Notes: generated by a model from the letters alone, not told the origin. 51,063 nt of DNA from Bacillota bacterium (GCA_018817915.1 JAHISX010000077.1:1-51063), one strand, 5' to 3'. Counted from the first letter of the stretch, positions 7,831 through 50,846 are shown. Translations and numbers: made by a program.

Positions 7831-7922
7831 ATTATTCCCCTTTAAATAGTATCTTTAGAAATAATTATATCATTTGTTAATTGTTTATTAAACATTTGAA
7901 TTTAACTATACTTATTTGATCA

Positions 7923-9191: not shown

Positions 9192-9256
9192 TATTTTCAC
9201 CGTCAATTTATTCAAACACATTTTTCTCTACTTATAAAAAATGTTCTTGTATTTAA

Positions 9257-30341: not shown

Positions 30342-30626
30342 CTAATATTTTATCATATTTCCCTTCTTATCAAATTTTATGTTTGATTTCTTGAATCTTC
30401 CATGTTCCTTATTGTGACACACTCTGCATAGTGCCACTAAATTATCGGTATTTAAAGTAACGATTGGATTCGAAATATTACTCTCATTAAGTTCTATAAT
30501 ATGGTGAACCTCTTCTGCTACACCATCACATTTTTCGCATCTGTAATTTACAGACAACATTTTTTGATTACGAACATTTTTCCATTCCTTTGAATCATAG
30601 AATGGTTTAATAGATTTTCTTGCCAT
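30342..30626 (-). CDS. HNH endonuclease
   Basis: 94 residues. CEKC, then EVHHIIEL, NTDNLVALCRVCHNKEH form the HNH core (His-His, Asn, His) with two CxxC zinc-binding pairs. Small phage HNH enzymes beside terminase genes assist DNA cleavage at packaging in related phages. The ATG at 30626 overlaps the end of metK by 20 bp. Confidence 0.9.
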   Translation of the reverse strand: MARKSIKPFYDSKEWKNVRNQKMLSVNYRCEKCDGVAEEVHHIIELNESNISNPIVTLNTDNLVALCRVCHNKEHGRFKKSNIKFDKKGNMIKY

Positions 30627-31725: not shown

Positions 31726-33055
31726 ATTCTTCTCCAGTTTCATTAAATACTTCAAAGTCACTAAGTGGATATTTTTTCCCATCTCTAATAAGATGACAGT
31801 CTTCAATGTTTCCACCATCAGATAAATATCTTTTCACAATAACATCAACATAGATTCTTGATAACTCCATAAGATAGCATTTTCTTCCCAATTGATTAGA
31901 TGCAATCAATGTTGAACCACTTCCACCAAATGGATCCATAATCAGTTCACCTTTTCGGCTTGAATTTTTGATGAGAGTACCAACTAAATTAATAGGTTTC
32001 ATGGTTGGATGCAAATCACATCTAGCAGGTTTATTTTCATTAATAACACTATACTTTGCAGATGCATACATATCTTCTAGAAGAGTTATCAATTCTTCTT
32101 TCTTCATTGATTTAAAATCAAGCATTGGTGCATCTATAACGGTTGTTTGTGTTCTGTCATTGACAAAGTAATGTGCATTACCTTCTTTAAAAGCATAGTA
32201 GATGGCTTCATGTTTCCATTGATAGTCTTGTCTTCCAAGAACAAATGTATTCTTGTTCCATATCAATTGTTGTCTTGGCTTTAAATTGACAGTTCTTAGT
32301 GCAACCTCAAATTCTACTAACGAAGATGATGAATGAAAAACATATACTGCACCACCTTTTTTTAAGAAATGCTCCGTGTTGGTGAATGCTAAAGTCAGGA
32401 ACACAATGAAATCACTACTTTCCATATGATCATTTAGAATACGTCTGTTGTCAAATGCTTCAATGACATCTCCCTTTGAACCAACATCGACATTGTATGG
32501 TGGATCTGTGACAACCAGGTCAATCAACTCATTGCCTAAAAGCGTTTTGAAATCACTTTCTTTAGTTGAATCACCACAAAGTAGTCTATGCTGCCCTAGT
32601 AGAAACAAGTCACCAATTTGACTAAAGGGTTCAACATTTAGTTCATTGTCTATATCAAATTCATCTTCATGTGTTTCTTCGTTTTTTTCTTCTATCGAGT
32701 GTTCAAATCCAAAAAGAGACATATCCAAGTTTAAATCAGCGAGTTCTTCATTAAGTTTTTCGATATCCCAGGTTGCGAGTTCACTCGTTTTGTTATCAAC
32801 CAATCTAAAAGCTCTGATTTGCTCTTCGGTTAGATCATCAGCAATTATACATGGTACTTCTAAAAGTCCTAACCGATGACTTGCTTTATATCTTGTATGT
32901 CCTGCTATGATGATATTATTACTATCGATGATGATAGGAACCTTAAACCCAAACTCGTTTATAGAGTTTGCTACAGCTTCTACTGCATCTTCATTGTTTC
33001 TTGGATTATTTTCATATTCCTTTAAATCACTTAATTTCTTGTAGATGATCTCCAT
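31715..33055 (-). CDS. ParB-domain DNA methyltransferase (N6-adenine or N4-cytosine)
   Basis: 446 residues from the ATG at 33055, behind AGGA. Residues ~1-100 are a ParB/Srx-like domain (IIAGHTRYKASHRLGL, EEQIRAFRLVDNK). The C-terminal part is an amino-methyltransferase of the DPPY class: VVTDPPYNVD, and a SAM-binding MDPFGGSGSTLIASNQLG after the target-recognition part, i.e. beta-type order. It probably protects phage DNA from host restriction. It overlaps the upstream small-terminase-like gene by 29 bp. Confidence 0.92.
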   Translation of the reverse strand: MEIIYKKLSDLKEYENNPRNNEDAVEAVANSINEFGFKVPIIIDSNNIIIAGHTRYKASHRLGLLEVPCIIADDLTEEQIRAFRLVDNKTSELATWDIEKLNEELADLNLDMSLFGFEHSIEEKNEETHEDEFDIDNELNVEPFSQIGDLFLLGQHRLLCGDSTKESDFKTLLGNELIDLVVTDPPYNVDVGSKGDVIEAFDNRRILNDHMESSDFIVFLTLAFTNTEHFLKKGGAVYVFHSSSSLVEFEVALRTVNLKPRQQLIWNKNTFVLGRQDYQWKHEAIYYAFKEGNAHYFVNDRTQTTVIDAPMLDFKSMKKEELITLLEDMYASAKYSVINENKPARCDLHPTMKPINLVGTLIKNSSRKGELIMDPFGGSGSTLIASNQLGRKCYLMELSRIYVDVIVKRYLSDGGNIEDCHLIRDGKKYPLSDFEVFNETGEEYEN

Positions 33056-33503
33056 TGATCCATTCCTCACTTAGTTTCTCCATTTTCTTTTCTGCTAATT
33101 CCAGCTCAAGCTTCTTGTCACTGTACTCTCTACCAAAATGAATAGTTAGCAAGTATTTGGCTGCTCCTATATCTGGAGGTACATCTTTAATGTGCTTAAT
33201 AATTCTTTTCTTTGTGCCACGTGCTGTTTCTTCAATGTATTGGTCTTCATCTGTTGATTTGAATCCAACTGCACGTTTTACAATGGCATCCATCAGCATT
33301 CCTTTAAAACGTTCTTTACCTTCTTCGTAAGCATCTTTCATGTCTGAATGCTTATTTTTAAGGGATTGAAATGTTCGCTTACTGATTCCAAGTGCAATTG
33401 CTATCATATCTTCATTAGCCCCTGTACTTGATAATTTTTTAATCAAATCAAGTTTGCTTTTTAACTCGTTTTTGTCCTTCCATTCATGATATATATTTTT
33501 CAT
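33027..33503 (-). CDS. HTH small-terminase-like phage protein
   Basis: 158 residues. An N-terminal helix-turn-helix (EDMIAIALGISKRTFQSLKN) is followed by a basic middle part (GTKKRIIKHIKDVPPD) and a C-terminal LTIHFGREYSDKKLELELAE segment. This layout is like small-terminase and other phage DNA-packaging proteins. A separate P27-type TerS lies 5 kb downstream, so its role may differ. It is the first gene after PL1. The GGAGG lies 14 bp from the ATG, unusually far. Confidence 0.65.
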   Translation of the reverse strand: MKNIYHEWKDKNELKSKLDLIKKLSSTGANEDMIAIALGISKRTFQSLKNKHSDMKDAYEEGKERFKGMLMDAIVKRAVGFKSTDEDQYIEETARGTKKRIIKHIKDVPPDIGAAKYLLTIHFGREYSDKKLELELAEKKMEKLSEEWINGDHLQEIK

Positions 33504-33679: not shown

Positions 33680-35431
33680 TTATGATAACAATAGCAATAG
33701 TTTGTCCTTTAACAAGGTTTTTCTTTGTTCATAAAAATCTAAGAACTCAACATAACCATATAAATTTAACTTCGGAATATAGTGCTTTTGTGAATAGCCA
33801 GGAAAGTCATTAATCAGTGTACAGTACACAGAAAAATCCATATCGCTTTTTTCTTGATTAATAGAACCTTCTAGCAGTTGCAAGTTAGGAAGTTGGTCGG
33901 ATTTTACTAGGTAATCGAAATGTAGGTTCACATCAATCATGTTCGCAGAGAGATTTGCTGATTTCATTTTTGCCTTAGGATACATATGGTCAATGTGAAA
34001 ACTATCCTTGTAATTTAGATTGGGGTATAAGATAGAAAGAACAACAAAAGTTGTTGGATCATCTTTCTTTTGAGTCAACAACTTATCAATGTCATCATTT
34101 GAAAAACTAAGACTTCTATTTCCACCTTTAAACTTATCCACGATACTATCAATAGGAAAAGTGTGTGTTGTATTGTGTCTAATTAGTTCTCTAATTGGTC
34201 TAAGTGCTCCATCAGGTGCAAAACTAAAGAAACGCTTTAAAGACGTTAACACAATCCATTTTCTGATGTTGTTCCTATCATTTGCTAGTTCAAGTCCAGT
34301 TTCAATGTTCTTATTTGGATTCTTAAAAAGATAATATGCAATTGGATGGAAAATGTTATTTGCTCTTAAGTTGCTTCCATTAAATCCCAGTGATGAAACT
34401 AATTTAAATGTTTTTCTAAGAGCAACGATAATTTGATCCCAGTTATCCTTGAATTTTTGCATATTTGTTGCAGTGAAATTGTCTACTTTCGCTGAAATAT
34501 CACTTGAGTCTGACAAATATAGAATTGACTTCATCACAAAAGCCTTGTCAATATAGAATCGCATTCCTATACTGTTTAGCTCACCTACTAAAGAGTTCAC
34601 GGAGTCTTTGAAATTTATATCTGTCCAATGTGAGTTAGCAAAACTAAATAGCAAATCTGAGGGGTTTAATGGAGTTCCACCGCTATTAACCCTAATAAAG
34701 ATGCTTAGTACTTTCTCCAATTCAGCATCTTCCTCCAAAAAATAACTCACTAGTGGTGATGTGAATATCACTTTATGAAGTCTAAATAGAGTTTTACTAG
34801 CAAACTTTCGAACATCATTGTCAGTTATAAAATTCAAGTTGTCATTTATATATTGTTGGACATCATCATGTTCAAATAAATCTAATATTTTTGATATAGG
34901 AAACCAAAATTTCGCAGTAGGTAATGATTTATTGCCTTTATTAGTTGTATTAGCTTCTTTCTCTTCTAGAAAACTTAACTCATAGTTTTCATTATCCTCA
35001 TCAAGTGGTCTCAACAAGTTAAGAAAGAGTTTCTTATCCGGATATGACTGTAGTTCACCTTTTTTGCCGTATTTTTTTCTCGTAGCATAAGAACCTTTTA
35101 ATGCAATATAAAGTGAGGTTAGTCTTTGTTGACCATCAAGAATTGCAGTTATTTCTCTTTCTCCACTCACATCAGCTTTTTTTGTTAAGTTATTGTTTAG
35201 TTGATTATATGTTCGCATGAATTCATAAAAAATATACTCTTTGACATTATTTCTTTGGACTTTCCAAAAAAGAAATGAATTAATCGGATACTCTTTAAGC
35301 AGTGAGTCAAAAAGATTAATTACTTGATCTGGTCTCCAAACAAATTCTCTTTGAATGGACGGCAATAAATACTCATGTTTGTGAATCTTGTCAATTACTT
35401 CTTTGATTGTAAGAGGAGTTTGGAATGCCAT
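33680..35431 (-). CDS. DUF262/DUF1524 GmrSD-like restriction protein
   Basis: 583 residues. The N-terminal DUF262 (ParB-like) domain shows LPSIQREFVW and TAILDGQQRLTSLYIAL, the DGQQR NTP-binding/hydrolysis signature. The C-terminal part has the HNH-type DUF1524 elements FHIDHMYPKAK and LPNLQLLEGSINQEKSD. Both halves of GmrS and GmrD are thus in one chain, as in type IV systems against modified phage DNA. It ends 6 bp before the PL1 box and has its own terminator. It fits the pattern of accessory genes sitting upstream of box promoters. Confidence 0.88.
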   Translation of the reverse strand: MAFQTPLTIKEVIDKIHKHEYLLPSIQREFVWRPDQVINLFDSLLKEYPINSFLFWKVQRNNVKEYIFYEFMRTYNQLNNNLTKKADVSGEREITAILDGQQRLTSLYIALKGSYATRKKYGKKGELQSYPDKKLFLNLLRPLDEDNENYELSFLEEKEANTTNKGNKSLPTAKFWFPISKILDLFEHDDVQQYINDNLNFITDNDVRKFASKTLFRLHKVIFTSPLVSYFLEEDAELEKVLSIFIRVNSGGTPLNPSDLLFSFANSHWTDINFKDSVNSLVGELNSIGMRFYIDKAFVMKSILYLSDSSDISAKVDNFTATNMQKFKDNWDQIIVALRKTFKLVSSLGFNGSNLRANNIFHPIAYYLFKNPNKNIETGLELANDRNNIRKWIVLTSLKRFFSFAPDGALRPIRELIRHNTTHTFPIDSIVDKFKGGNRSLSFSNDDIDKLLTQKKDDPTTFVVLSILYPNLNYKDSFHIDHMYPKAKMKSANLSANMIDVNLHFDYLVKSDQLPNLQLLEGSINQEKSDMDFSVYCTLINDFPGYSQKHYIPKLNLYGYVEFLDFYEQRKTLLKDKLLLLLS

Positions 35432-36096: not shown

Positions 36097-36369
36097 TTAG
36101 TCATAGAAAAAATCCGGATTTAATTCAGAAGGACTTTTCCATCTAATCCCATAATCACGTCTTAAAATTCGTTTTTTCATTCTCTCGATAATATGGATGA
36201 AGCCTAAATGGTTACCTAAAGCGTAATGGATTTCATGAAGTGTCATTTTCTCATGTTCTGAACTCAGTTTTAATTCTTTACAGATTTCTTTGACTATCTT
36301 TGGCTCTAATTCGGATTCAAGTTGCTCAACTCGTTCCTCTATTGCCATAGAATTACTCTTAAATGGCAT
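36097..36369 (-). CDS. Small helical protein, unknown
   Basis: About 90 residues from the ATG at 36369, eight bases after GGAGG. It is acidic and helical at first (ERVEQLESELEPKIVKEICK) and basic later (ERMKKRILRRDYGIRW). No domain is recognised. It overlaps the end of the HExxH gene by 11 bp, so the two are translationally coupled. Confidence 0.6.
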   Translation of the reverse strand: MPFKSNSMAIEERVEQLESELEPKIVKEICKELKLSSEHEKMTLHEIHYALGNHLGFIHIIERMKKRILRRDYGIRWKSPSELNPDFFYD

Positions 36370-36790
36370 TTCCCAACCCTCCATTAGTCTCATTAATTAT
36401 ATAGTTAATCAGCTTATTGCTAAATGCTATTGCATCCTTTTCAATTTCTTGATTTAGATAATCATTATGCTCAGGTCTTTTATAGTTATCAAACTCCTTA
36501 GCCCAAATAGCAACAATCTTTGGATCGTGATAGATGAGTTTTGGGAAGTCGATACAAGCTCTTTGATATGCATGTCTAGTTTCATGGAAACTGCACTTAA
36601 GGATTTCAAGTTCATCTGCATTTTCTATCCAGTCACTACTAAATACAATGTAGTATCCTTCATGAAGAAATGTTGCATTGATATCATTATGTTTAAAGAA
36701 TGATTGTGGCTTGAAATGGACCTCTATATCTGATAATCCTAGTTTTTTTGATGCATAATCAACACCAAATCTCGCTATTTTCTCTTTCAT
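36359..36790 (-). CDS. Predicted HExxH metallopeptidase-like protein
   Basis: 143 residues. The motif CSFHETRHAYQ (H-E-x-x-H) in the middle is the zinc-binding helix of gluzincin-type peptidases. A downstream QEIEKDAIAFSNKLI offers a possible third ligand (Glu/Asp). The overall size resembles ImmA/IrrE-type peptidases that cleave phage repressors, but no helix-turn-helix partner is adjacent. It is the first of three small minus-strand genes beyond the restriction-island edge. Confidence 0.65.
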   Translation of the reverse strand: MKEKIARFGVDYASKKLGLSDIEVHFKPQSFFKHNDINATFLHEGYYIVFSSDWIENADELEILKCSFHETRHAYQRACIDFPKLIYHDPKIVAIWAKEFDNYKRPEHNDYLNQEIEKDAIAFSNKLINYIINETNGGLGNAI

Positions 36791-36817
36791 CTTACACCAA
36801 TTATCTAGTATTTTTTA

Positions 36818-36931
36818 TTGCCGTTCACTGTGGTTTTTGCCATGTTATTGGCAATACCCTATTTTGTCCTATAAAGGGTATATAATAGGTATGCTTTGTC
36901 CTATGAAAGGTATGTTGGTGTTGCCGTTCAC
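36818..36931. repeat. Left-edge repeat of the restriction island
   Basis: TTGCCGTTCAC occurs twice (36818-36828 and 36921-36931) in direct orientation. Between them are two GTCCTATRAA-type units. Positions 36862-36931 match 44365-44434 at 59 of 70 bases without gaps. A TTGCCA/TGGCAA hairpin lies near 36837-36854. Confidence 0.85.
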
Positions 36932-36981
36932 ACCTATTATCAGACAAAAAAACAATAAATGCACGAAAGTCAGTTTAAGTG

Positions 36982-38187
36982 TCAATGGTTGGTAGATTTT
37001 TTTATTTCATCAGTTAATAAATCGAGTTTCAGTTTTGTTTGATGTTTTGAAAATGCTTCAAGTGCAAAATGAACATCGAGTAGAATGAGTGAAACTTTAT
37101 CATGTGTTTTATTAGTCATATTGCGCCACTCAGTTTCACCATATCCAATATATCTAATCTCTTTTGGTCCCAGTTTGCTTGTTTTTGAGTTATAAGGTAA
37201 AACAAATGCATTATATATATCTACTCCATCACTTAATATTGTATTCATAAAATCTGAATAAGTAATTTGTTTTTGAATATCACTACTGTTTGGTAAATTG
37301 TTATACAACTCGAAAGAGTAATACTTAGCATCTAGTATAAAGTGCTTATCATTAAAATTTAAAACTGTATCTGGGCGCAGTTTTGAATTTTGCATTCTTT
37401 GATAACCAGTGGATTCTTCAAATATATAGAACGAACTTGGGTAGAACTTACTAATTTCAGGTTCATTTCCAAACAATTTAGAAATTATCACTTCCCAAAC
37501 TGCTTCAAAATTATATGTTCCAAAACTTTTAATTTTGTTGTGTCCCATCTCAGAAGACGATTCTTTTAAAATGTTTATCATTTCTGAGATTAGATGTTTT
37601 TTTCTGTCTACGAATGTTTTGTATTGTTCTTTAATCAAAATTGACAAAAGATAGTCATTTGCATAGTTAAAATCATCAATTGGAATATTGATATTTCCAT
37701 AGATAAAGCCTATAGTTTGATATGCAATATTCAGGCACTTGATATGTATTTTTGTGATTATATCGTTTTTATCAATTTGTCTTTGAGTAATAGTTTTTAA
37801 GAATATAGCTTGATTATCATTGAAATAAGGTTCTGACCTTATAGTTTTCTTCCAGTTTATTTTTCCTGATCCATTCACCTTGTACTCTGTATCTTTGTTA
37901 GAGTATAGCCCATTGTTCAAATAATCATTTAGCATCCATAGATATGAATAAATTGGCAATTGGTTTCTCAAATCTTGACTATCATACAGATAATTCGAAG
38001 ATAAATTGTACTTGTTAGAAATGTAGATAGTCCGAAATAAAGAAAAGATTGATTTTTGACACTCTTGATTCGTTTCTGGTATGTTGTATGACATAGGAAA
38101 AAATATTGAAGGTTTACTATCGCTATAGCTTATACCTACAAAAGAATTACCTTTATCAGCGTTTTTACATAGACTCTTCAGTTCCAT
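36982..38187 (-). CDS. LlaJI-type restriction endonuclease subunit (R2-like)
   Basis: About 401 residues from the ATG at 38187. A frame from 38220 adds 11 residues and overlaps the upstream gene more. The C-terminal half has a PD-(D/E)XK core, LRPDTVLNFNDKHFILDAKY (the D...DAK pattern). It also resembles McrC-type proteins, which supply the nuclease to an AAA+ partner. It is last in a four-gene operon with two m5C methylases and an McrB-like motor, the LlaJI arrangement. The start overlaps the partner's TGA. Confidence 0.82.
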   Translation of the reverse strand: MELKSLCKNADKGNSFVGISYSDSKPSIFFPMSYNIPETNQECQKSIFSLFRTIYISNKYNLSSNYLYDSQDLRNQLPIYSYLWMLNDYLNNGLYSNKDTEYKVNGSGKINWKKTIRSEPYFNDNQAIFLKTITQRQIDKNDIITKIHIKCLNIAYQTIGFIYGNINIPIDDFNYANDYLLSILIKEQYKTFVDRKKHLISEMINILKESSSEMGHNKIKSFGTYNFEAVWEVIISKLFGNEPEISKFYPSSFYIFEESTGYQRMQNSKLRPDTVLNFNDKHFILDAKYYSFELYNNLPNSSDIQKQITYSDFMNTILSDGVDIYNAFVLPYNSKTSKLGPKEIRYIGYGETEWRNMTNKTHDKVSLILLDVHFALEAFSKHQTKLKLDLLTDEIKKSTNH

Positions 38188-38188
38188 A

Positions 38189-39874
38189 TCAAACCGAAAA
38201 ATCGATGTTCTTAAAAACATCTAATTTATATACTTCAAATCCCATTAACAAATCATCTAGAGTTCTAATACTATCATCAAACCAAATTGATGAATCGATC
38301 TTTGCAATATCATCCCAAAAATACATTAATACTTTTTCTGAGAATAGTTTGATTTTTAATACATTCAATTCATTAGCAGCTAGAGTAAGTATTTCCTTTG
38401 AAATGAAATAAATCCCAATTTGCTTATCTTCGCTATTAATACCTATAGGGTTATTCAACACAATACTCTCATTAACTTTTTTAACAAATGTCATCCATTT
38501 AACCTGTGTCCCTGGAACATAACTATTTGCTAGTGAGACAGTATATGGATCTGATAAATCAAACTCATTTTTGATTTTTACCATTTGCCATCTTCTTTTA
38601 AAAGCTGTATCCAGTGTGAAAACATTTTGGTCACTAGTATTCATTGTAGCAATTATCCACAAGTTTGATGGAATCTCAATACTACTGTAGCCTATATACT
38701 GCTCTAGCATAGGGTTTTTCACCTTATATATACTCTTACCTAGCAAATCTCTATCAAGCAGTTGAAATATATCTCCAAATATTGCAGAAGCATTTCCACG
38801 ATTAATTTCTTCTATAATTAAAGCACATTTCTTACTTGGGTTAGTTATAGAATACTTTAATATTCTAGCAAAAACTCCAGGTACAAATGTATATGTAATT
38901 CTATCCCCAACCAATTTTGGTATTATCTGTCCAACAAAATCACTGTTGCTAAACTCCGGATGAAAAGTAGTTCTTTCAACATGAAAATTAACTTCACTAA
39001 ACAGAGTACTCACTTTGTAGCTTTTGCCACATCCTGGGTTTCCGTAATAGATCACGTTTTCTGCCCCTGTTACAATGGATTCTGCAACGGCTTCTTCTGT
39101 TTCTTCATTTTCGTGCAATTGTCTAGCACTTAAATTGTTAACTCTCGGTCTTAATGAAATATCTTTGTCGATATTATATATTACCAAATTACGAAGTCTA
39201 TTTTCGAATCTAGAAAGTACTTCTTCGTTGATAATTATCTTTTTAGATTGCTCAGCTAAAGAACTGTCTTCTTTTAAAAATCCCCATCTAATTAGAATCA
39301 TAATCGGTTTTGCGTCAGTATATTTAGTTGCAACTGGATCTAGAACAAATGAATCTGAATGTCTTAACTGTTTTACTTGTTCTATTACATCAGAATAGTT
39401 TGCTCCAACATCTTCAATTTGCCATAAAATAAAAGCAAACTCCTTATATGTTAAGTAGTCTAAATCAAAAATAGCTCTTATAAATAAACATGGTGGTTCA
39501 ATATCTGAATTACTAAGTGGTGATCCATAATTGTTTCTGCCAAAATTTGTTTTTTCAAGAGAATTCATTATTTCTTCTTGAATTTCCAAATAATTATCGT
39601 TTCTAATGGCATTATAGAATCTTATTCCGCTTTCAGTTATTTTTCTTCTTGATTGAGGATTACTAATATCTTCCCAAATAGTGAATCCAAAATATGAAGT
39701 TATTTGTGCCTTTTTTGTATAAGATGAAGAATATTGATCAGGCCCAATTAGTTCTTTTAGTTTTGTAACATACACATCATTTGTCATCCAGTCATTTGTT
39801 TCATTATATATTTGAAGGACTGCATGTATTTCTGATAAAACTGCACTATTTTTTGGCATTACTATTTTCCCCAT
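38189..39874 (-). CDS. McrB-like AAA+ motor of the LlaJI-type system (R1-like)
   Basis: 561 residues, ATG behind AAGGAG. The C-terminal half is a McrB-type AAA+ domain: YGNPGCGKSYKV (Walker A), CALIIEEINRGNASAIFGDI (Walker B), then ATMNTSDQNVFTLDTAFKRR (sensor 1 and Arg finger). The N-terminal ~270 residues are likely for DNA recognition. Known McrB enzymes use GTP and translocate DNA to the nuclease subunit. It lies 2 bp downstream of the second methylase. Confidence 0.9.
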   Translation of the reverse strand: MGKIVMPKNSAVLSEIHAVLQIYNETNDWMTNDVYVTKLKELIGPDQYSSSYTKKAQITSYFGFTIWEDISNPQSRRKITESGIRFYNAIRNDNYLEIQEEIMNSLEKTNFGRNNYGSPLSNSDIEPPCLFIRAIFDLDYLTYKEFAFILWQIEDVGANYSDVIEQVKQLRHSDSFVLDPVATKYTDAKPIMILIRWGFLKEDSSLAEQSKKIIINEEVLSRFENRLRNLVIYNIDKDISLRPRVNNLSARQLHENEETEEAVAESIVTGAENVIYYGNPGCGKSYKVSTLFSEVNFHVERTTFHPEFSNSDFVGQIIPKLVGDRITYTFVPGVFARILKYSITNPSKKCALIIEEINRGNASAIFGDIFQLLDRDLLGKSIYKVKNPMLEQYIGYSSIEIPSNLWIIATMNTSDQNVFTLDTAFKRRWQMVKIKNEFDLSDPYTVSLANSYVPGTQVKWMTFVKKVNESIVLNNPIGINSEDKQIGIYFISKEILTLAANELNVLKIKLFSEKVLMYFWDDIAKIDSSIWFDDSIRTLDDLLMGFEVYKLDVFKNIDFSV

Positions 39875-39876
39875 TT

Positions 39877-41028
39877 TTATCGCTCCTTGGTTGGAAATTT
39901 ATTTATTAGTTCCAACATAATTTTTTTTACCATTAAAGGTGGTATTCCCTCACCTATAACTTTTCTGATAAATGTTTCATTGGAATCTTCGGGAATATTC
40001 CAATTTTCAGGCAAAGACATTACTATAAAGATTTCATGCAACGTTAATACTCTTGGATCCGAATATAGTGAAACTTCATTTTCGGTATAAAGCCTACCAG
40101 GATGAACGCATGCTAATGAGGATATTACACCGTTGTTTTGTGTGATTGTTCGTGAAGGTTTATTCCAATTCATTCTGCGATAATGGTTATGATGTGCAAT
40201 AACTCTTTTTCCATTATCTTTTTTGGGGTAGTAATATTCGTTAAATGTGGCTGACTTACCAGTCGGAGTATGCATCATCCATTCAACTTGTTTTAACGAA
40301 TGCTTTGGAGGTTTATGCCATTTAGATACCTTAAGTCCAAGTTCTCTCTTTAAAATAAAATCAGGAAATATTTTAAGAGTTAATTCTAACCCTTCACGCA
40401 AAAGTGGATCTAATGATGGGAGATCTCCAATAACATCTTCAAGTGTGACCTCTGGTTCCTTTTTTGGGAATTCCCAATTTATATTCAAAGTTTTTCTTAC
40501 AAGCAAGAAAATATTCCTTTCTCGTAACTGTGGTACACCATGATCCTTTGCCATTATTAACGAGTCTTTATTAAAATTATACTCCAATTGTAATTCGTTT
40601 TTTATATAATCTGGAATTAAAATTTTTTCTCCATTTACTTTTATATAAGTTATTAGGTTTTTAGGAACATTTTCAAGAAGTATGTAATCAGGTTTTACTG
40701 CTTTAATTACATCAATTGCATAATAAATTAGTTGATTTCTTACATCATCAGGATCTCTGTTTCCAGCTTCACTCATTCCCTGGCATGGAGGAGTTGCAAT
40801 GACAAAGTCTACTCCATTTTTTAATGCTTTTTCTATAATTAATTGTCGAGTTGTATCATTAGTTATATCGCCACAAATCATTTCAGTTTTAGGATATAAG
40901 TGTCTGTACAAGTCAGCTCGTTGTTGGTTCAATTCATTAGCAACTAATATATCTATACCGATTTCCTCAAAATATGCTTCAGCGATACCTACATTTGCAA
41001 ACAAGGATAAACCCTTGATTACTCCCAT
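39877..41028 (-). CDS. m5C DNA methyltransferase, LlaJI-type M2
   Basis: 383 residues. SAM-binding LFANVGIAEAYFEEIGI, catalytic Cys82 in TPPCQGMSEAG, ENVPKNL, and QLRERNIF are the motif I, IV, VI and VIII elements of C5-cytosine methylases. A C-terminal GEGIPPL is motif X. It is a diverged paralogue of the next methylase, overlapping it by 10 bp. LlaJI-type systems need two enzymes because the target is asymmetric. The recognition sequence here is unknown. Confidence 0.9.
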   Translation of the reverse strand: MGVIKGLSLFANVGIAEAYFEEIGIDILVANELNQQRADLYRHLYPKTEMICGDITNDTTRQLIIEKALKNGVDFVIATPPCQGMSEAGNRDPDDVRNQLIYYAIDVIKAVKPDYILLENVPKNLITYIKVNGEKILIPDYIKNELQLEYNFNKDSLIMAKDHGVPQLRERNIFLLVRKTLNINWEFPKKEPEVTLEDVIGDLPSLDPLLREGLELTLKIFPDFILKRELGLKVSKWHKPPKHSLKQVEWMMHTPTGKSATFNEYYYPKKDNGKRVIAHHNHYRRMNWNKPSRTITQNNGVISSLACVHPGRLYTENEVSLYSDPRVLTLHEIFIVMSLPENWNIPEDSNETFIRKVIGEGIPPLMVKKIMLELINKFPTKER

Positions 41029-42329
41029 ATTGCACCTCTTAATTGTTCAAAAACTCTTCTAGTAAACAAAGGTGGAATACCTTCCCCAATTACAGATCTT
41101 AAGAAAGCTGCAGGTGTATTTTCTGGAAGTGGCCATTCGTTTGGTATACTACTGACTAACATCAATTCGTAAACTGTTAATGCTCTAGCATCACTATAAA
41201 TTATAGCTCCACTCTGTGTAGTTCCTATAGGTCTTCCAGGGTGTACGTTATTCTGAGATGAGATTTTTCGATTGTCCATTGTTACGGTGTAAGCTGGAAT
41301 ATCCCACTCTTGTCTCTTGTATGTGTTCTTAAAACCTTTTACAAACTCTCCGTTGTCTTTCTGTGGTTTATATTCAGGTTTATTATCAAATGCCGTTTTT
41401 CCTGTAGCAGTATGCATCATTACCTCTACTTGCCTTCTAACATGAGTTGGTGGGAAATGCCATTTCGATATCTTATGTGCTGCTTTTGCTCGTTCTTCAT
41501 AATTTGGAAATAACTTAATTAACTCATCATGACTTATATCCTTTATGTGAGGATCTAAAGGAGGAAGATTTCCTATGGCATCTCGCATCGTGACAATTTT
41601 GTCCTCTTTAGGTGGTACAACCCATTCATATGGAACATCAGATCTACTTAAAAGTATGATTGCTCTTTCTCTTGTTTGAGGGACCCCATAATCCTTAGTG
41701 TCAATTTTATAAGTGTTAACTCGATATTTTCTACCTAATTCTTTTTGAATAAATTCTATAATGTTAATTTCTTCATCTTTGTAGTTGATTGATGTTTGAA
41801 ATAGTAAAGGAACATTTTCTATAAATGCGTATTTAGGACTAATTTCTTTTATAAGTTTAACTACTGGAACAATTAAGTCATTTCGTTCATCATCTTTTTC
41901 TTGTCGTCCAGCAGTACTCATTCCTTGGCATGGAGGAGTAGCCATAATGACATTAACACCTAGTTCATTACTACGCGCAATTAAGTACTCTTGAATAGCA
42001 GTACTCGTAATATCTCCAATCTTCATTTCAGTTTTTGGATATATTTCTTGATAGAGTTTTGCTCTTCTTTCAACAATTTCATTAGCAAGAACAACATCAA
42101 TACCTATATCTTCAAAAAATGCTTCGGCGACTCCAATGTTGGCAAATAAAGAGAGCACTTTTGCTCCCTCAATTTTTGATTTTGTCCTGTTTAATTCACC
42201 CTTCTTTATTTCGTTTCTAATATAATCAGTTAAAAATTGATTAATGTTGGTTCTTCGCTTTGCAACCAATACTTTTAACTGTTCATGTTCATCTTGTGAT
42301 ATTCTGACACTTATTCTAGGGTCTTTCAT
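41019..42329 (-). CDS. m5C methyltransferase with N-terminal ribbon-helix-helix domain
   Basis: 436 residues. Residues 1-~45 (PRISVRISQDEHEQLKVL) form a ribbon-helix-helix DNA-binding domain. The methylase proper follows: LFANIGVAEAFFEDIGI, catalytic Cys134 in TPPCQGMST, ENVPLLF, QTRERAI and GEGIPPL. It is the promoter-proximal gene of the four-gene restriction operon. The extra domain, and three 8-bp direct repeats just upstream of its promoter, suggest that the enzyme regulates its own operon, so that modification precedes restriction. Confidence 0.88.
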   Translation of the reverse strand: MKDPRISVRISQDEHEQLKVLVAKRRTNINQFLTDYIRNEIKKGELNRTKSKIEGAKVLSLFANIGVAEAFFEDIGIDVVLANEIVERRAKLYQEIYPKTEMKIGDITSTAIQEYLIARSNELGVNVIMATPPCQGMSTAGRQEKDDERNDLIVPVVKLIKEISPKYAFIENVPLLFQTSINYKDEEINIIEFIQKELGRKYRVNTYKIDTKDYGVPQTRERAIILLSRSDVPYEWVVPPKEDKIVTMRDAIGNLPPLDPHIKDISHDELIKLFPNYEERAKAAHKISKWHFPPTHVRRQVEVMMHTATGKTAFDNKPEYKPQKDNGEFVKGFKNTYKRQEWDIPAYTVTMDNRKISSQNNVHPGRPIGTTQSGAIIYSDARALTVYELMLVSSIPNEWPLPENTPAAFLRSVIGEGIPPLFTRRVFEQLRGAIWE

Positions 42330-42362
42330 GACTACACCTCATCTGTAAGTTATTTTAGTTCT

Positions 42363-42420
42363 ATGTTATCACAGGATATGCATTAAGTCAATCTTTGAAC
42401 GCCAAAACGCCAAAACGCCA
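42363..42420 (-). promoter_or_regulatory. Restriction-operon promoter with triple 8-bp repeat
   Basis: On the minus strand TTGACT (42391-42386), a 17-bp spacer and TAACAT (42368-42363) form a good promoter for the methylase starting at 42329. Directly upstream, at 42420-42398, GGCGTTTT repeats three times in tandem. Ribbon-helix-helix regulators often bind such direct repeats. Confidence 0.7.
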
Positions 42421-42422
42421 TT

Positions 42423-43226
42423 TTATAGCTTTTTTCTGCTGAATTCTTTTCTTGCACTCTCCATTGCTGTTATAAAGTATCCATACTTATTTTCTATCGG
42501 CTCACTCTTTAATTTCCAATTTTTTATCCGTTCTTTATTTCGATAGATAAAGTATTGAACATAGAGTTTGTAATCATCAAATTCAAAACCATTCTTACCT
42601 ATGAACTTATTGAAGAAGTTGTCATACCTGAAAAACTCCAACTCATCAGTTTTCGTTAGATATCTTGCATTCACTAAGTACCTGGTTAATACATGATTCT
42701 TAGAAAATGCTATTTCATCTTCTAGCTTGCTACTTTTATCTAATTTCTCTAATATATCTGATTTATCTAATACATCCTTTACTATAGTGTTGATATCAAA
42801 ACCTTTAATATATTCTTTATTATTGGGTGTCATTTTGTCATCGGTTAAGTGACATTCTGACACTGGTTCTTTTGACATTTTGTCATCATCCTTGTGACGT
42901 TTTGTCATGGGTAGTGACATTTTGTCACTAGTGAATTCATTTGGGATTATTTCAAATGAAACATATTTCACATGATTTTTGTAATACTCACTTTTCTCAA
43001 TCAGTTTTTTTTCAATTAGCAAGTCAATCAATCTAAAAACTTGTCTTCTTGATATATCTAGTCTATTAGCCAAATATTCGATGGATCCAAAGAATCCACC
43101 TTTTGTATCTTGGGAATAGGAAAAAATTAAGGCATAGAGCCTTAATTCGCTTCCCTTTAATCCCATTGTAGTCATCCAATAGAATTCAACTATAAAGTGA
43201 TTTGCTGGTATCTCATTCTTTGGCAT
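42423..43226 (-). CDS. Winged-helix (HTH_36-like) replication/regulatory protein
   Basis: 267 residues from the ATG at 43226, behind GGTGAG. Residues ~25-85 form a winged helix of the HTH_36/replication-initiator type (LYALIFSYSQDTKGGFFGSI, then LDISRRQVFRLIDLLIEKKL). A charged linker and a helical C-terminal half follow. Plasmid and phage initiators share this N-terminal domain, but a regulatory role is equally possible. It overlaps the third methylase by 14 bp, and the triple repeat lies 2 bp after its stop. Confidence 0.7.
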   Translation of the reverse strand: MPKNEIPANHFIVEFYWMTTMGLKGSELRLYALIFSYSQDTKGGFFGSIEYLANRLDISRRQVFRLIDLLIEKKLIEKSEYYKNHVKYVSFEIIPNEFTSDKMSLPMTKRHKDDDKMSKEPVSECHLTDDKMTPNNKEYIKGFDINTIVKDVLDKSDILEKLDKSSKLEDEIAFSKNHVLTRYLVNARYLTKTDELEFFRYDNFFNKFIGKNGFEFDDYKLYVQYFIYRNKERIKNWKLKSEPIENKYGYFITAMESARKEFSRKKL

Positions 43227-44313
43227 TAATCTCACCTACAAACAAAGTTTTAAACATTTCTTTAAGTACTGTAACAACAACAGAGTTTCCAGCTAGTCTA
43301 TATAGTGCTGTTTCACTTATTTTGCCATCAACTCTCATGAAATCATAATCACTCCATCCCATCAATCTCCAACTTTCTTTAGGAGTTATTTTACGGATTG
43401 ATATGAGTTCATCTTTGTGAACAACAACTCCTAAATCACTGACAGATGTCTTCAGTGTGGGAATCGATTCTTTTTGCACTACACCACGCTTTTGATGAGG
43501 TCTGTTGATGTAGATGCCATCTCCTACTTGGGCAGTTGTACTGCCCTTTTTTGTCGCTTCTGGAACGATAACAAAGTTATCCGTTGGAGTCGATCCAGTT
43601 CTAGTTGTGATTGTCCAAGCATAATTGCTGTCTTTGTCGTGAGGTCTGAACCTGGTTGCTCTTACAAATCCATTTCTATTTTTCGTATCTGTATAGTATC
43701 TAAACATTTTTGGAGAAACAAAGTATTTCTCATCTACTTGATCATCTAAGTATTCACTCAACTTTTTCGTTAATGGTAACTTCTTTGGAAATACATACTT
43801 CTCATTCCCCATAATTGAAACGAGAAAAAGTCGCTTCCGATTTTGAGCGACACCATAATCTTTTGCATTCAACACATCGTAATAATTCTTATATCCCATT
43901 TCTTCTAGGATACTTAGCCATATCTTGAAATGCTCTAAATACCGTTTGCCAACTAGGGTTGGAACATTTTCCATGATCAAGTACCTGGGTTTGTATTCAG
44001 CTGCATGAAGCAATCTTTCGATTTCCCACAATAAACTTGATTGTGTCTTAGATTCACGATCCATTCCTTTCATCTGCCCTGCAATAGATATGTCAGTACA
44101 AGGAAACGAATAGCACCACATCTCTGCATCAGGAGTTCTTCTAACTCTTCTTATGTCACCAAGCACATTCGTTCTGCCATGAAGTATTTGATACGCTTTA
44201 ATGGCATTCTCATCTATCTCTGAAATCCCAACAACTTCATGTGGGATATTTATTTCTTTTAGGGCTTGGTGATATGCACCAATGCCAGCAAAAAACTCTA
44301 TAATTCTTAGCAT
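43213..44313 (-). CDS. Phage-type m5C DNA methyltransferase
   Basis: 366 residues from the ATG at 44313, behind AGGAGA. The frame from 44355 includes repeat sequence. Motif I is IEFFAGIGAYHQAL, catalytic Cys72 in SFPCTDIS, then MENVPTL, QNRKRLFLV, a target-recognition region, and SWRLMGWSDYDF with a terminal RLAGNSVVV. It is a different lineage from the LlaJI-type pair. It is the outermost gene of the repeat-flanked island. Confidence 0.92.
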   Translation of the reverse strand: MLRIIEFFAGIGAYHQALKEINIPHEVVGISEIDENAIKAYQILHGRTNVLGDIRRVRRTPDAEMWCYSFPCTDISIAGQMKGMDRESKTQSSLLWEIERLLHAAEYKPRYLIMENVPTLVGKRYLEHFKIWLSILEEMGYKNYYDVLNAKDYGVAQNRKRLFLVSIMGNEKYVFPKKLPLTKKLSEYLDDQVDEKYFVSPKMFRYYTDTKNRNGFVRATRFRPHDKDSNYAWTITTRTGSTPTDNFVIVPEATKKGSTTAQVGDGIYINRPHQKRGVVQKESIPTLKTSVSDLGVVVHKDELISIRKITPKESWRLMGWSDYDFMRVDGKISETALYRLAGNSVVVTVLKEMFKTLFVGEINAKE

Positions 44314-44334
44314 GATTTTTTCTCCTAAAATAAT

Positions 44335-44434
44335 GTGAACGGCAATCAAAAACATACTTAGTCGTTTTGTCCTACAAAGGGTATATACATGGTAGTCCTT
44401 GTCCTACGAAAGGTATGTTTACGTTGCCGTTCAC
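44335..44434. repeat. Right-edge repeat of the restriction island with long dyad
   Basis: GTGAACGGCAA (44335-44345) pairs with TTGCCGTTCAC (44424-44434), and AAACATAC (44350-44357) pairs with GTATGTTT (44413-44420), giving 11 + 8 bp of stem. The last 70 bp (44365-44434) match 36862-36931 at 59 positions. It could fold as RNA or be bound as DNA. Confidence 0.85.
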
Positions 44435-44449
44435 TACTGTTATGTGTCG

Positions 44450-44644
44450 TTATTTTTTGATACTGTTTTTTTCGTTTTCTAAAGAATTATCGGCATAAAA
44501 TTTGTCGAGATTTTCTTTGGTGATTCGGTAGTTGTTTCCGAATTTAAATGCTTTAATCTTACGTTCTTTGACGTATCTTAAAACAGTCTTTCGTGATACT
44601 TTTAAGTACTCTGCAACTTCAGTTAATGTAAATGTTTCATTCAT
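44450..44644 (-). CDS. Excisionase-like MerR-type DNA-binding protein
   Basis: 64 residues. FTLTEVAEYLKVSRKTVLRY followed by IKAFKFGNNYRITKENLDKF is the winged-helix of small excisionase-family proteins that bend DNA at attachment sites. The short basic C-terminal tail fits. It overlaps the next gene by 4 bp and is two genes from a tyrosine integrase, so a recombination-directionality role is likely. Confidence 0.8.
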   Translation of the reverse strand: MNETFTLTEVAEYLKVSRKTVLRYVKERKIKAFKFGNNYRITKENLDKFYADNSLENEKNSIKK

Positions 44645-47713: not shown

Positions 47714-49336
47714 ATGAAGACAATTGAAGTGATTCAACCAATCAACCGTTTTATCAATGAAGCAACAAATGAGGTCATTCGCAAAAAGCGAGTCGCTGCA
47801 TATGCACGTGTGTCAACCGATGAAGACGATCAGATGAACTCCTTTAAATTTCAGATTGATGAATACACCAGTCGAATTCAGGCTAACAAGGACTGGGAGT
47901 TTATAGGTATGTTTTCAGACCAAGGCTTATCTGGTACACAAACGAAAAAGCGTCCTGAGTTCATGAAGATGATTGAACTAGCAAGACGCCAAGAGATTGA
48001 TTTGATTTTAGTTAAATCGATTTCACGGTTTGCACGAAATACAGTTGACATTCTATCGCTTGTAAGAGAACTTAGAGACTTGGGATGCATTATCTATTTC
48101 GAAAAAGAAAACATCTATTCAAGTGATCCACAAATCGATTTCACATTGGCGATACTTTCATCGATTGCACAAGAGGAATCCAGGTCGATTTCGACAAATG
48201 TTAAATGGAGTGTAGAAAAGAGATTTAAAGCTGGAAAGGCACACATACCAAAGATTTATGGATTTGACAAGAACGAACAAGGTGAACTGGTTATCAACGA
48301 TGAAGAAGCCAAGACCGTCAGACTCATCTACACTCTCTTTCTTCAAGGGTTTAATATCAATGATATTAGAAAGGTTTTAAATGAAAGAAAAATACCAACT
48401 CTCAACAAAAAAGAGTGGCTCTACAATGGCGTTAAATGCATTTTAACTAATGAGAAGTATTGTGGTGATGCCATTCTGCAAAAGACCGTTACAACTGATT
48501 ATTTGACTCACAAGCAGGTTAAGAATGATAATCTTGCTACAAAGTATTTCGTTAGAAATAATCACGAAGGAATCGTGAGTAAAGCTGCGTTTGAAATGTC
48601 CAAAACCATTTTTGAAGAGTCATCGAGATCATCTCGCAATCTGGTCACTAAGTATCCGTTAACAAATATGGTTTATTGTTCTAAGTGTCATGGTAATCTT
48701 CACAGACATCTAGTTAATTATGGCCGACCATCTGAAAGAGTTACTCTTGATTGTCGACACAATAGAATAGATAAATCTATCAAGTGTGACAGACCTTGGA
48801 TTGACAACAATTTAGTTATTGAAACTATCATGGAATCCATCAAGCGTTTGCTTTCATCTGATGAAATCATCAATACATTAATGGATGAGTTAGCAGATGT
48901 TTCATGCAGTGAGGAATTAAGTGAGTTACTTCTTAAGAAAAAACAAGATTTGACAAAACTGATTCATCAAAGGAATACTGATGGAAACTTGAATCTCGAT
49001 TCGTTTCTTCATCAGGAAAAATTCTTGAAGAAAGAAATTAGTAACCTTAAGAGACAAATCACTTCTTCTATCAAGAATGTATCATTAGCTGACATCTTGA
49101 GAAACCATTCTAGTGACATCATATCCAATGATTCACACTATTTGATTAAAAATATCTACTCACTGATCATCATGGATGTAGACAAAATAATTTGTGTTAT
49201 TTCAAAGAAGTCTACATCTGATGAGTTAATTCTGCGTATTGATGAATTGATGAAAACCGAACCAATAATTCGAGGTTTCTATAAGGACTATGAACAAGAA
49301 AAAACTTTTGGTTACAAGGTGATCATACATGAGTGA
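47714..49336 (+). CDS. Large serine recombinase 1
   Basis: 540 residues. The N-terminal resolvase domain has the nucleophile Ser34 in YARVSTDEDDQ, SISRFARNTVD and YFEKENIYSS. A recombinase domain (about 190-290) and a zinc ribbon (MVYCSKCHGNLHRH with later DCRHN and KCDRPW) follow, then a coiled coil. All catalytic elements are intact. It overlaps the second recombinase by 8 bp. Both are needed in some two-recombinase systems, such as CcrA/CcrB. RBS GGGAG. Confidence 0.95.
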   Translation: MKTIEVIQPINRFINEATNEVIRKKRVAAYARVSTDEDDQMNSFKFQIDEYTSRIQANKDWEFIGMFSDQGLSGTQTKKRPEFMKMIELARRQEIDLILVKSISRFARNTVDILSLVRELRDLGCIIYFEKENIYSSDPQIDFTLAILSSIAQEESRSISTNVKWSVEKRFKAGKAHIPKIYGFDKNEQGELVINDEEAKTVRLIYTLFLQGFNINDIRKVLNERKIPTLNKKEWLYNGVKCILTNEKYCGDAILQKTVTTDYLTHKQVKNDNLATKYFVRNNHEGIVSKAAFEMSKTIFEESSRSSRNLVTKYPLTNMVYCSKCHGNLHRHLVNYGRPSERVTLDCRHNRIDKSIKCDRPWIDNNLVIETIMESIKRLLSSDEIINTLMDELADVSCSEELSELLLKKKQDLTKLIHQRNTDGNLNLDSFLHQEKFLKKEISNLKRQITSSIKNVSLADILRNHSSDIISNDSHYLIKNIYSLIIMDVDKIICVISKKSTSDELILRIDELMKTEPIIRGFYKDYEQEKTFGYKVIIHE

Positions 49337-50846
49337 GATTTATGAGATACCAGTTGATGTATCACATTTAATAAAAAAGAGAGTTGTCATTTATGCACGA
49401 GTATCTACTGAACTAGTTGAGCAAGAAACCTCTTATGAAAGGCAAGTTCTCGAATTAGCAAAATCTGTAAGAGATAACAAAGATTACAATCTTGTATGTG
49501 TTTACGCAGATAAGGAAAGTGGTCGCTCAATGAATAGACCTGCCTTTACACAAATGTTGGAACTCGTTAACGCTGGTGCGATCGACTTAATCTTGACAAA
49601 ATCAATTGCACGTTTTGGTCGCAACATAATTGAAGTTGTTAATATCATCCAGGAACTAAGATTAAAAGGTGTGGAAATCTACTTCGAGAAAGAAAATCTT
49701 TCCACTTCTAATCCAACCATGGATTTTACATTATCACTTCTAAGTGCACATGCTGAAGAGGAATCTAGGCAAATTTCAATGAATACAATATGGGCATTTG
49801 AAAGTAAAATGAAAAGAGGTCTGAACACGACCTCTGGATTATATGGATATTCTATTAAAGGAGATATCTACACGATTATTGAAGATGAAGCGGTGATTGT
49901 TAGAAAAATCTACTCATGGTATATCTTGGGTCACTCATATAAAAACATCATTCAATATCTACAAGATATGAGAGCATTAACTCCTTCTGGTAAAGATAAG
50001 TGGAGTCAAAGAACACTAGAAGATATACTTAAGAATGAAAAATATGTTGGTGATATGTTACTGCGAAAAAAAATGAACGATCGAATCGTAAGACCAGAGA
50101 TTCTTTCAGCGTTGAACCTAAATCAATACTATGTTAGTAATCACCATGAACCTATTATTACTAGAGAGACTTGGAATGAAGTACTAGATTTGAGAAAGAA
50201 AAAAACTAAGTTTGATGGTAAAGGTAAAATCTTTAAACTTAATCCTTATGCCTATTTCTACTATTCTCAAGACTTTAATAGACACTTCACTTATTACGTA
50301 GAACGTCACAAAGGTAAATACGAAGTTCCAACACTAATATGTAAGTGTGATTTAGGAAGATTTGCTTTTCGAAACAATGATATTGAGAATGGCATTTCGT
50401 TAGCTGCATCACATATTATAAAAAACAAAGACAAAATAATGGAACATATAAAACACCAAATTGCACCAACATCTTTACGCTTAGCAAATCAACTTGATGA
50501 GTTATATTGGGGAATTGAAGATAGATCTGTCAATGAACAAATTAATAGATATTCAATAATCTCCGACAATTTATCTAAGTTGCACCGAATTAATGAGGTT
50601 GAAAAACTAGTCACAGAAACTGTTTATCATTCAAAGAAACTTGCTGTTGAGCCAAACATCGAATTAATCAAAAAAGTCTTTACAAAGGTAATTTTTACTG
50701 GTTTTAAAGTGCATTTAATTATTTCCTTAACTAACGATGACTTCAAGGTAATTCCTGAAAATAAATATCTTATACACTCATACCGAATTCCAATTATCTA
50801 TAAATACAAGCATAGTGAGTTGGAGTTCAATCTTTATATATGTTAG
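49329..50846 (+). CDS. Large serine recombinase 2, degenerate zinc ribbon
   Basis: 505 residues. Ser26 in YARVSTELVEQ, SIARFGRNIIEV and YFEKENLSTSN mark an intact catalytic domain. The recombinase domain follows. At the usual zinc-ribbon place the first Cys pair is replaced (PYAYFYYSQDFNRHF) and only CKC remains, so zinc binding is doubtful. This suggests division of labour with recombinase 1. It starts within the end of that gene. Confidence 0.93.
   Translation: MSEIYEIPVDVSHLIKKRVVIYARVSTELVEQETSYERQVLELAKSVRDNKDYNLVCVYADKESGRSMNRPAFTQMLELVNAGAIDLILTKSIARFGRNIIEVVNIIQELRLKGVEIYFEKENLSTSNPTMDFTLSLLSAHAEEESRQISMNTIWAFESKMKRGLNTTSGLYGYSIKGDIYTIIEDEAVIVRKIYSWYILGHSYKNIIQYLQDMRALTPSGKDKWSQRTLEDILKNEKYVGDMLLRKKMNDRIVRPEILSALNLNQYYVSNHHEPIITRETWNEVLDLRKKKTKFDGKGKIFKLNPYAYFYYSQDFNRHFTYYVERHKGKYEVPTLICKCDLGRFAFRNNDIENGISLAASHIIKNKDKIMEHIKHQIAPTSLRLANQLDELYWGIEDRSVNEQINRYSIISDNLSKLHRINEVEKLVTETVYHSKKLAVEPNIELIKKVFTKVIFTGFKVHLIISLTNDDFKVIPENKYLIHSYRIPIIYKYKHSELEFNLYIC

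What the first reader, a model, noticed from the sequence alone, without database searches (positions are those of the whole stretch)
36862..44434. Restriction island flanked by 70-bp imperfect direct repeats
36862-36931 and 44365-44434 agree at 59 of 70 positions in the same orientation and bound exactly the LlaJI-like operon, winged-helix gene and third methylase. This suggests the island was inserted, or can be lost, by recombination between the repeats. It lies where early replication genes would be expected.
Basis: seen in the sequence. Interest (0 to 1): 0.65.

Follow-up and report, generated by a model that had tools for sequence, protein, structure and literature searches.

The report
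Swappable defence slot beside repeated element

Summary
The repeats are real: 59/70 matches, against at most 43/70 in shuffled sequence. They are the core of a conserved non-coding element of about 128 bp. Both copies (W1 at 36.8 kb, W2 at 44.4 kb) are kept at the same places in two sibling phages. Each copy is 97-99% identical to its counterpart in the closest sibling, but only 84% identical to the other copy. The restriction cargo between them is completely different in each sibling: LlaJI here, another type II R-M system, or a Pbe system. Cargo breakpoints fall at W1's edge and at the replication-initiator gene, not at W2. W2, the third methylase and the 'winged-helix' gene belong to the conserved phage backbone. 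That winged-helix gene is an O-like replication initiator with five 13-bp iterons inside it, so the 'missing' early replication gene is in the island. Non-phage islands with the same recombinase pair, initiator and promoter motif carry BREX, type I R-M or Z1/MORC cargo followed by one W1-type element. Best reading: a P2/P4-like defence hotspot shared by a temperate phage clade and satellite-like islands, with cargo swapped by recombination in conserved flanks. Deletion between the repeats is not supported. The element's own function (packaging site, operator or recombination site) is unresolved.

The parts
36817..36948 (+). W1: full 128-bp conserved element (dyad TGCCGTTCAC, R1, R2, TTGCCGTTCAC); its cargo-side edge is where the cargo changes between sibling phages
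   Evidence: homology with UBA6182 and UViG ends at 36948/36949
36862..36931 (+).
44365..44434 (+).
36982..38220 (-). LlaJI-type restriction endonuclease (R2-like)
   Evidence: Pfam RE_LlaJI 2e-40; PADLOC REase_II
38189..39874 (-). AAA_5 ATPase subunit of the LlaJI-type system (R1-like)
39877..41028 (-). m5C methyltransferase of the LlaJI-type operon
41019..42329 (-). m5C methyltransferase of the LlaJI-type operon; N-terminal extension before the methylase domain
   Evidence: domain from residue 57
36949..42441 (.). swappable cargo slot as defined against UViG_3300005326_000711 (36949-43240 against UBA6182)
42423..43235 (-). replication initiator, O-like ('winged-helix gene')
   Evidence: phrog_270 replication initiation 9.7e-10, phrog_678 O-like 2e-06; HTH_36 and sub-threshold DnaD_N
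42828..42927 (.). five 13-bp iterons TGACAAAATGTCA (20-23 bp spacing) inside the initiator gene: candidate replication origin
   Evidence: 4 of 500 synonymous shuffles reach 5
43213..44355 (-). third m5C methyltransferase, conserved backbone gene of the phage clade (90-97% identity)
44450..44644 (-). HTH_17 (excisionase/AlpA-type) protein, shared with the non-phage islands
45386..46318 (-). tyrosine recombinase, phage clade only
47714..49336 (+). large serine recombinase 1 of a tandem pair shared with the islands
49329..50846 (+). large serine recombinase 2; prophage end follows at the tRNA-Leu 3' end
36359..36790 (-). 143-aa conserved phage gene on the far side of W1; insertion point of an extra cassette in UBA6182
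30342..30626 (-). HNH endonuclease in the packaging cluster (suggests cos-type packaging)
   Evidence: Pfam HNH 5.8e-07

Best explanation
The repeats are two copies of a conserved non-coding element of an integrated temperate phage. SHOWN: the downstream copy (W1) forms one wall of a defence-cargo slot, and the replication initiator with its in-gene iterons forms the other wall. Different phages of the clade hold unrelated defence systems in this slot. Islands that carry the same serine-recombinase pair, HTH_17 protein, initiator and a shared promoter-like motif, with no phage structural genes seen in the stretches examined, have the same order: initiator, defence cargo, one W1-type element. 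INFERRED: cargo is exchanged between co-resident phages and islands by recombination in the conserved flanks (initiator side and W1 side), not by deletion between W1 and W2. INFERRED and less certain: W1 is a protein-binding site that phage and islands must share. A packaging (cos-like) site and an operator are about equally likely candidates. The second copy W2 has been recruited or kept at the methylase operon.
For: Both copies are conserved at the same places in UBA6182 and UViG_3300005326_000711, with different cargo between them. Cargo identities: LlaJI; fused type II methylase + REase + AAA_21; PbeA/PbeC + methylase; BREX; type I R-M, by homology to G004 genes typed; Z1/HATPase/DUF4420 + m5C methylase. 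Breakpoints are at 36948/36949 and at 42442 or 43240. Orthologous copies are 68/70 and 69/70 identical while W1 against W2 is 59/70. The initiator occurs in exactly five of the six genus genomes with the element and in none of the other 14. The recombinase pair tracks it. A promoter-like motif AGTCTTCAGTTTGAC...TACAAT precedes three window operons and serine recombinase 1, and both divergent operons of the islands, and is absent from five collinear phages lacking the element. The element is better conserved than neighbouring coding DNA: 82-89% against 70-73% around W1.
Against: Only two siblings carry both repeats in one assembled contig (G017 is cut off in the cargo). No recombination event was observed, and the exchange mechanism rests on breakpoint positions. 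Sharp edges could simply reflect selection to keep an intact element and gene. The satellite status of the islands (induction, packaging) is untested. The function of the element is not shown: W2's conservation is awkward for a cos site, and no consensus promoter was found on the gene strand of W1. R units in unrelated tRNA-Leu islands are not explained.
Confidence: 0.68

Rival explanations
1. One reading: the 7.5-kb island is a unit inserted or deleted by homologous or site-specific recombination between the two direct repeats.
For: Real direct repeats bounding the block; R2 cores nearly identical; tyrosine recombinase gene lies next to W2.
Against: Siblings keep both repeats, methylase and initiator and swap only inner cargo. 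Longest identical run is 12 nt and there is no homogenisation in the closest pair. No junctions found in viral contigs. Loss would remove the replication initiator.
Confidence: 0.08
2. The element is a cos/pac packaging signal shared by the phage and the islands. W1 sits between the early and packaging modules, defence cargo accumulates beside it as beside cos in P2/P4, and free cos ends promote exchange.
For: Position between initiator/cargo and the packaging cluster; HNH gene plus HK97-type TerL; a dyad plus phased direct repeats; sharing with islands without structural genes; TerS only 42-44% identical in collinear phages that lack the element against 90-98% in siblings that have it; P2/P4 precedent (PMC9122126).
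Against: A second conserved copy, W2, 7.5 kb away would cut the genome twice unless disabled (it lacks the outer dyad arm). TerS divergence is only correlative. R units also occur in other contexts.
Confidence: 0.3
3. The element is an operator/promoter module repeated in front of two leftward operons (methylase-initiator; 143-aa gene onward), and of a small-protein/222-aa operon in the islands.
For: Always just upstream of a start codon and in one orientation relative to genes. The LRR gene in UBA6182 has borrowed the 143-aa gene's leader and first codons directly after the element. TTGTCC sites are spaced at about three helical turns.
Against: No sigma-70-like site on the gene strand of W1 and only a weak one at W2, none above shuffle expectation. 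Other operons use a different shared promoter-like motif. Each cargo appears to have its own promoter (sequence, inspection only). R units elsewhere are oriented opposite to the adjacent genes.
Confidence: 0.32
4. The element is a recombination site for the serine-recombinase pair or another recombinase, so that cassettes are captured at it, integron- or SCC-like.
For: Perfect co-occurrence with recombinase group 1 except G011. Extra cassettes in UBA6182 and G014 joined at the outer edge of the dyad. R units separate cassettes in tRNA-Leu islands. Inverted dyad loop in G019.
Against: The phage's own chromosomal junction is at tRNA 3' ends and lacks the element. G004 and G006 have R units without recombinase group 1. 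No hybrid sites seen.
Confidence: 0.15

Closest known systems
P2-like phage / P4-like satellite anti-phage hotspots (Rousset et al. 2022, PMC9122126)
   Same: A small locus of interchangeable defence systems between two conserved genes, on one side a replication gene and on the other the packaging/structural module; phage and apparent satellite share a short non-coding sequence beside the hotspot.
   Different: Different bacterial phylum and unrelated genes; phage and islands here also share recombinases, replication initiator and promoter motif; a second copy of the non-coding element exists in the phage; the shared element is not shown to be cos.
LlaJI restriction-modification operon (Lactococcus plasmid pNP40; PMC1459862)
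   Same: Two m5C methylase genes followed by an AAA subunit and the LlaJI-family nuclease.
   Different: Carried as phage cargo; recognition sequence unknown.
Lambda O-type initiators with origin iterons inside the gene (established knowledge)
   Same: O-like initiator with an iteron array inside its coding sequence.
   Different: Helix-turn-helix of HTH_36/DnaD-like type; three iteron classes among relatives; origin activity untested.
SCC/ccrAB elements of staphylococci (established knowledge)
   Same: Tandem pair of large serine recombinases mobilising islands with R-M/BREX cargo.
   Different: Insertion of the prophages at tRNA 3' ends, not rlmH; HTH_17 and O-like initiator; a phage version with full structural genes.

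Membership tests
P2/P4-type phage/satellite defence hotspot | Variable defence genes between two conserved backbone features in several related phages | tested here: met
   window, UBA6182, UViG_3300005326_000711 and G017 carry different cargo next to the same initiator; W1 follows it in the three whose cargo end is assembled
P2/P4-type phage/satellite defence hotspot | Hotspot adjacent to the cos site | tested here: inconclusive
   W1 has a plausible position and architecture and an HNH gene is present; no end mapping possible
P2/P4-type phage/satellite defence hotspot | Non-phage partner depends on a helper phage for mobilisation | not testable with these tools
   only shared promoter-like motif, recombinases and element
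Island flanked by recombining direct repeats | Relatives with the whole flanked block absent and one hybrid repeat | tested here: not met
   no such genome among the loci examined; junction patterns gave 0 hits in viral contigs
Island flanked by recombining direct repeats | Exchange breakpoints coincide with both repeats | tested here: not met
   one edge at W1, the other at the initiator gene, 1.1-2.0 kb from W2
LlaJI-type R-M system | Gene order methylase-methylase-AAA-LlaJI nuclease | tested here: met
   reference order
LlaJI-type R-M system | Recognition of the LlaJI site | not testable with these tools
   no methylome or enzyme data
O-like replication initiator with in-gene origin | PHROG/Pfam similarity to replication initiators | tested here: met
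   phrog_270, 428, 678
O-like replication initiator with in-gene origin | Iteron array within the gene | tested here: met
   five copies in the window, 4/500 synonymous shuffles reach that; related arrays in relatives are weaker singly, and none was called in G014
Integron-like cassette array | Tyrosine integrase acting on a recombination site that follows each cassette | tested here: inconclusive
   element follows the last cargo gene, but no integrase common to all loci

The most novel reading that the evidence does not exclude
The 128-bp element is the packaging (cos) signal shared by a Mollicutes-related temperate phage clade and its satellites. Defence cassettes are exchanged at cos ends, giving an independently evolved P2/P4-like phage-satellite defence economy in which phage and satellite also share recombinases, replication initiator/origin and promoter motif. 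The second copy W2 would let the phage occasionally package genomes that omit the methylase-initiator-R-M block.
Probability: 0.22. Interest if true: 0.75.

Novelty: new variant of a known kind. Interest (0 to 1): 0.55.

Why it matters
It shows a defence-gene exchange slot, with its flanking anchors identified to the base, shared between temperate phages and satellite-like islands in a lineage where such hotspots are little studied. That bears on how BREX, type I/II R-M and Pbe-like systems move between mobile elements. It also gives a DNA marker (the 128-bp element plus the initiator) for finding further unknown defence systems in Acholeplasma-like genomes.

Tried and rejected
1) Deletion/insertion by recombination between the repeats: rejected on conserved W2-methylase-initiator, 12-nt longest identity, no homogenisation in the closest pair and no junctions (the junction pattern was validated on the intact window copy). 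2) Element as a simple sigma-70 promoter: no consensus hit on the gene strand of W1 and only a weak one at W2, none above shuffle expectation. 3) Element as the chromosomal attachment site: prophage ends are at tRNA 3' ends without it. 4) RNA structure: single-strand folds show only the GTGAACGGCA dyad and no conserved fold was pursued. 5) First iteron statistics (even-length palindromes, then whole-gene counts) were badly designed and gave no signal; a local-array test did. 7) Helper search by TerL gave related phages in ten genus genomes with TerL about 76% identical outside the clade; this does not identify a helper.

Full report
OBSERVATION. The two 70-bp stretches match at 59 of 70 positions in the same orientation. 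Shuffled versions of the region give at most 43. Each contains two R units (TTGTCCTAYRAARGGTAT, 32 bp apart) and a terminal TTGCCGTTCAC. The 70-bp sequence is the right part of a 128-bp element at W1 (36817-36944), whose left part is a dyad TGCCGTTCAC-N16-GTGAACGGCA in its relatives.

GENES. Leftward from W2: m5C methylase (43213-44355), winged-helix gene (42423-43235), then m5C methylase, m5C methylase, AAA ATPase and LlaJI-family nuclease. The last four match the LlaJI order of two methylases followed by two restriction genes (PMC1459862). The window is a whole 51-kb contig of a 2.13-Mb metagenome-assembled genome. It holds an integrated temperate phage: tail, capsid, portal and terminase genes, a phage-type repressor, a tyrosine recombinase and a tandem pair of large serine recombinases. 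Its right end abuts the 3' end of a tRNA-Leu gene, as in the sibling prophage of genome G017. The same record is in IMG/VR as UViG_3300014656_000038.

THE WINGED-HELIX GENE IS A REPLICATION INITIATOR. It matches phage replication initiation and O-like families and contains five 13-bp iterons, TGACAAAATGTCA, at 20-23 bp spacing inside the coding sequence. Four of 500 synonymous-codon shuffles reached five copies. Relatives have arrays at a similar place with other sequences (TCGCAAAATGCGA; TCCGAAAATCGGA). These are weaker statistically one by one, and in G014 none was called.

RELATIVES. The element was found in five other genomes of the same genus and in none of the more distant ones among 101 searched. 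Searching with the serine recombinase found named records: Acholeplasmataceae and similar metagenome assemblies, and a second viral contig. Two siblings carry both repeats: UBA6182 (9431-9561 and 18547-18625) and UViG_3300005326_000711 (25988-26115 and 35188-35268). Between the repeats both keep the third methylase and an initiator, but the cargo differs. UBA6182 has a fused type II methylase, a REase and an AAA_21 protein; the UViG has PbeA, PbeC and a methylase; G017, cut off by its contig end, has another m5C methylase. Window against UBA6182: identity of about 95-97% stops at 36948 and resumes as fully conserved at 43240, with the initiator's C-terminal part at 79%. Window against the UViG: homology stops at 36949 and resumes at 42442. 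So the replaced unit is LlaJI, in one case with the initiator allele, and never includes W2.

NON-PHAGE ISLANDS. G002, G014 (two islands), G019 and a contig filed under 'Ignavibacteriales SURF_28' have the order serine recombinases | HTH_17, initiator, defence cargo. The cargo is Z1/HATPase/DUF4420 with m5C methylase, BREX, or type I R-M. A W1-type element follows the cargo in G002, in both G014 islands (partial at the contig edge in C56) and in SURF_28. In G019 the element is on a separate contig. No phage structural genes were seen in the island stretches examined. Within the genus the initiator is present in five of the six genomes that have the element and in none of the other 14. A promoter-like motif, AGTCTTCAGTTTGAC...TACAAT, precedes the TerS, capsid and one further operon and serine recombinase 1 in the window, and both divergent operons of the islands. 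It is absent, at up to two mismatches, from five collinear phages that lack the element. This suggests shared control by one activator (inference).

ARE THE REPEATS RECOMBINING? Between the window and UBA6182 the copies are 68/70 (W1) and 69/70 (W2) identical to their counterparts, while W1 and W2 differ at 11 positions in each genome. They have not been homogenised while the cargo between them was replaced. In the UViG, W1 and W2 are as similar to each other (62/70) as to orthologues, so that lineage is uninformative. The longest identical run in the window is 12 nt. Patterns for a deletion junction and a circle junction found nothing in the viral collection, and the pattern design was checked on the intact copy.

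WHAT IS THE ELEMENT? It is more conserved than neighbouring coding DNA (82-89% against 70-73% at W1), so it is probably functional. Three readings remain. (i) Packaging site: it lies between the early and packaging modules; an HNH gene and HK97-type TerL suggest cos packaging (the HNH-cos link is from general knowledge); islands share it; TerS is 90-98% identical in siblings with it and 42-44% in collinear phages without it. In P2/P4 the hotspots lie beside cos between replication and portal genes, and free cos ends were proposed to drive exchange (PMC9122126). The second copy W2 is a difficulty. (ii) Operator: it always precedes a start codon in one orientation, but shows no consensus promoter on the gene strand of W1. 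(iii) Recombination site: two extra cassettes, in UBA6182 and G014, join at the outer edge of the dyad, and single R units separate cassettes in tRNA-Leu islands. I favour (i) and (ii) about equally and do not claim either as shown.

VERDICT. Real and more informative than first described, but ordinary in kind: a phage/satellite defence hotspot with an unusual repeated anchor element. The deletion-by-repeat model is not supported.

Noticed in passing
23575, 29051, 33657 (-) and 47445 (+): Repeated promoter-like motif AGTCTTCAGTTTGACC...TANAAT in front of four phage operons and in both divergent promoters of related islands (G002, G014, G019, SURF_28): possible common activator linking phage and islands.
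   Followed up: partly
42828-42927: Iteron array inside the initiator gene; relatives fall into three iteron-sequence classes that track the N-terminal helix-turn-helix type.
   Followed up: partly
207-340 and 5414-5479: 66-68 bp repeats (tandem at 207-340) carrying the R motif in opposite orientation; similar units separate type I R-M, SoFic and other cassettes next to tRNA-Leu in G004:C5, G006:C43 and contigs C58, C69, C13. TTGTCC copies appear spaced by about 10, 21 or 32 bp (one to three helical turns, by inspection).
   Followed up: partly
33680-35431: GmrSD-type restriction gene absent at this place in UBA6182 and UViG_3300005326_000711: a second variable defence insertion in this phage.
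   Followed up: partly
L255 (UBA6182) 6613-9407: BspA-type leucine-rich-repeat gene inserted between the element and the 143-aa gene with a 55-bp duplication of that gene's leader; the new gene appears to have borrowed its first codons.
   Followed up: yes
L033 (G019:C1) about 2621-2656: The 16-bp loop of the element's dyad is inverted relative to the other copies.
   Followed up: no
30607-31818 and 31715-33070: The phage encodes an S-adenosylmethionine synthetase next to a ParB-methyltransferase fusion in its packaging cluster; the arrangement is conserved in collinear phages of the genus.
   Followed up: no
4197-5117: Complete RpoD-like sigma factor (regions 1.2 to 4) in the distal part of the prophage contig, between R-motif repeats.
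   Followed up: no
L157/L257 (QZJX01000100.1): Contig labelled Ignavibacteriales SURF_28 carries genes 79-91% identical to Acholeplasmataceae islands: probably misbinned, otherwise a distant transfer.
   Followed up: no
L236 right end: The sibling phage contig ends at a different tRNA gene than tRNA-Leu(GAG), so the prophage family uses more than one tRNA 3' end.
   Followed up: no
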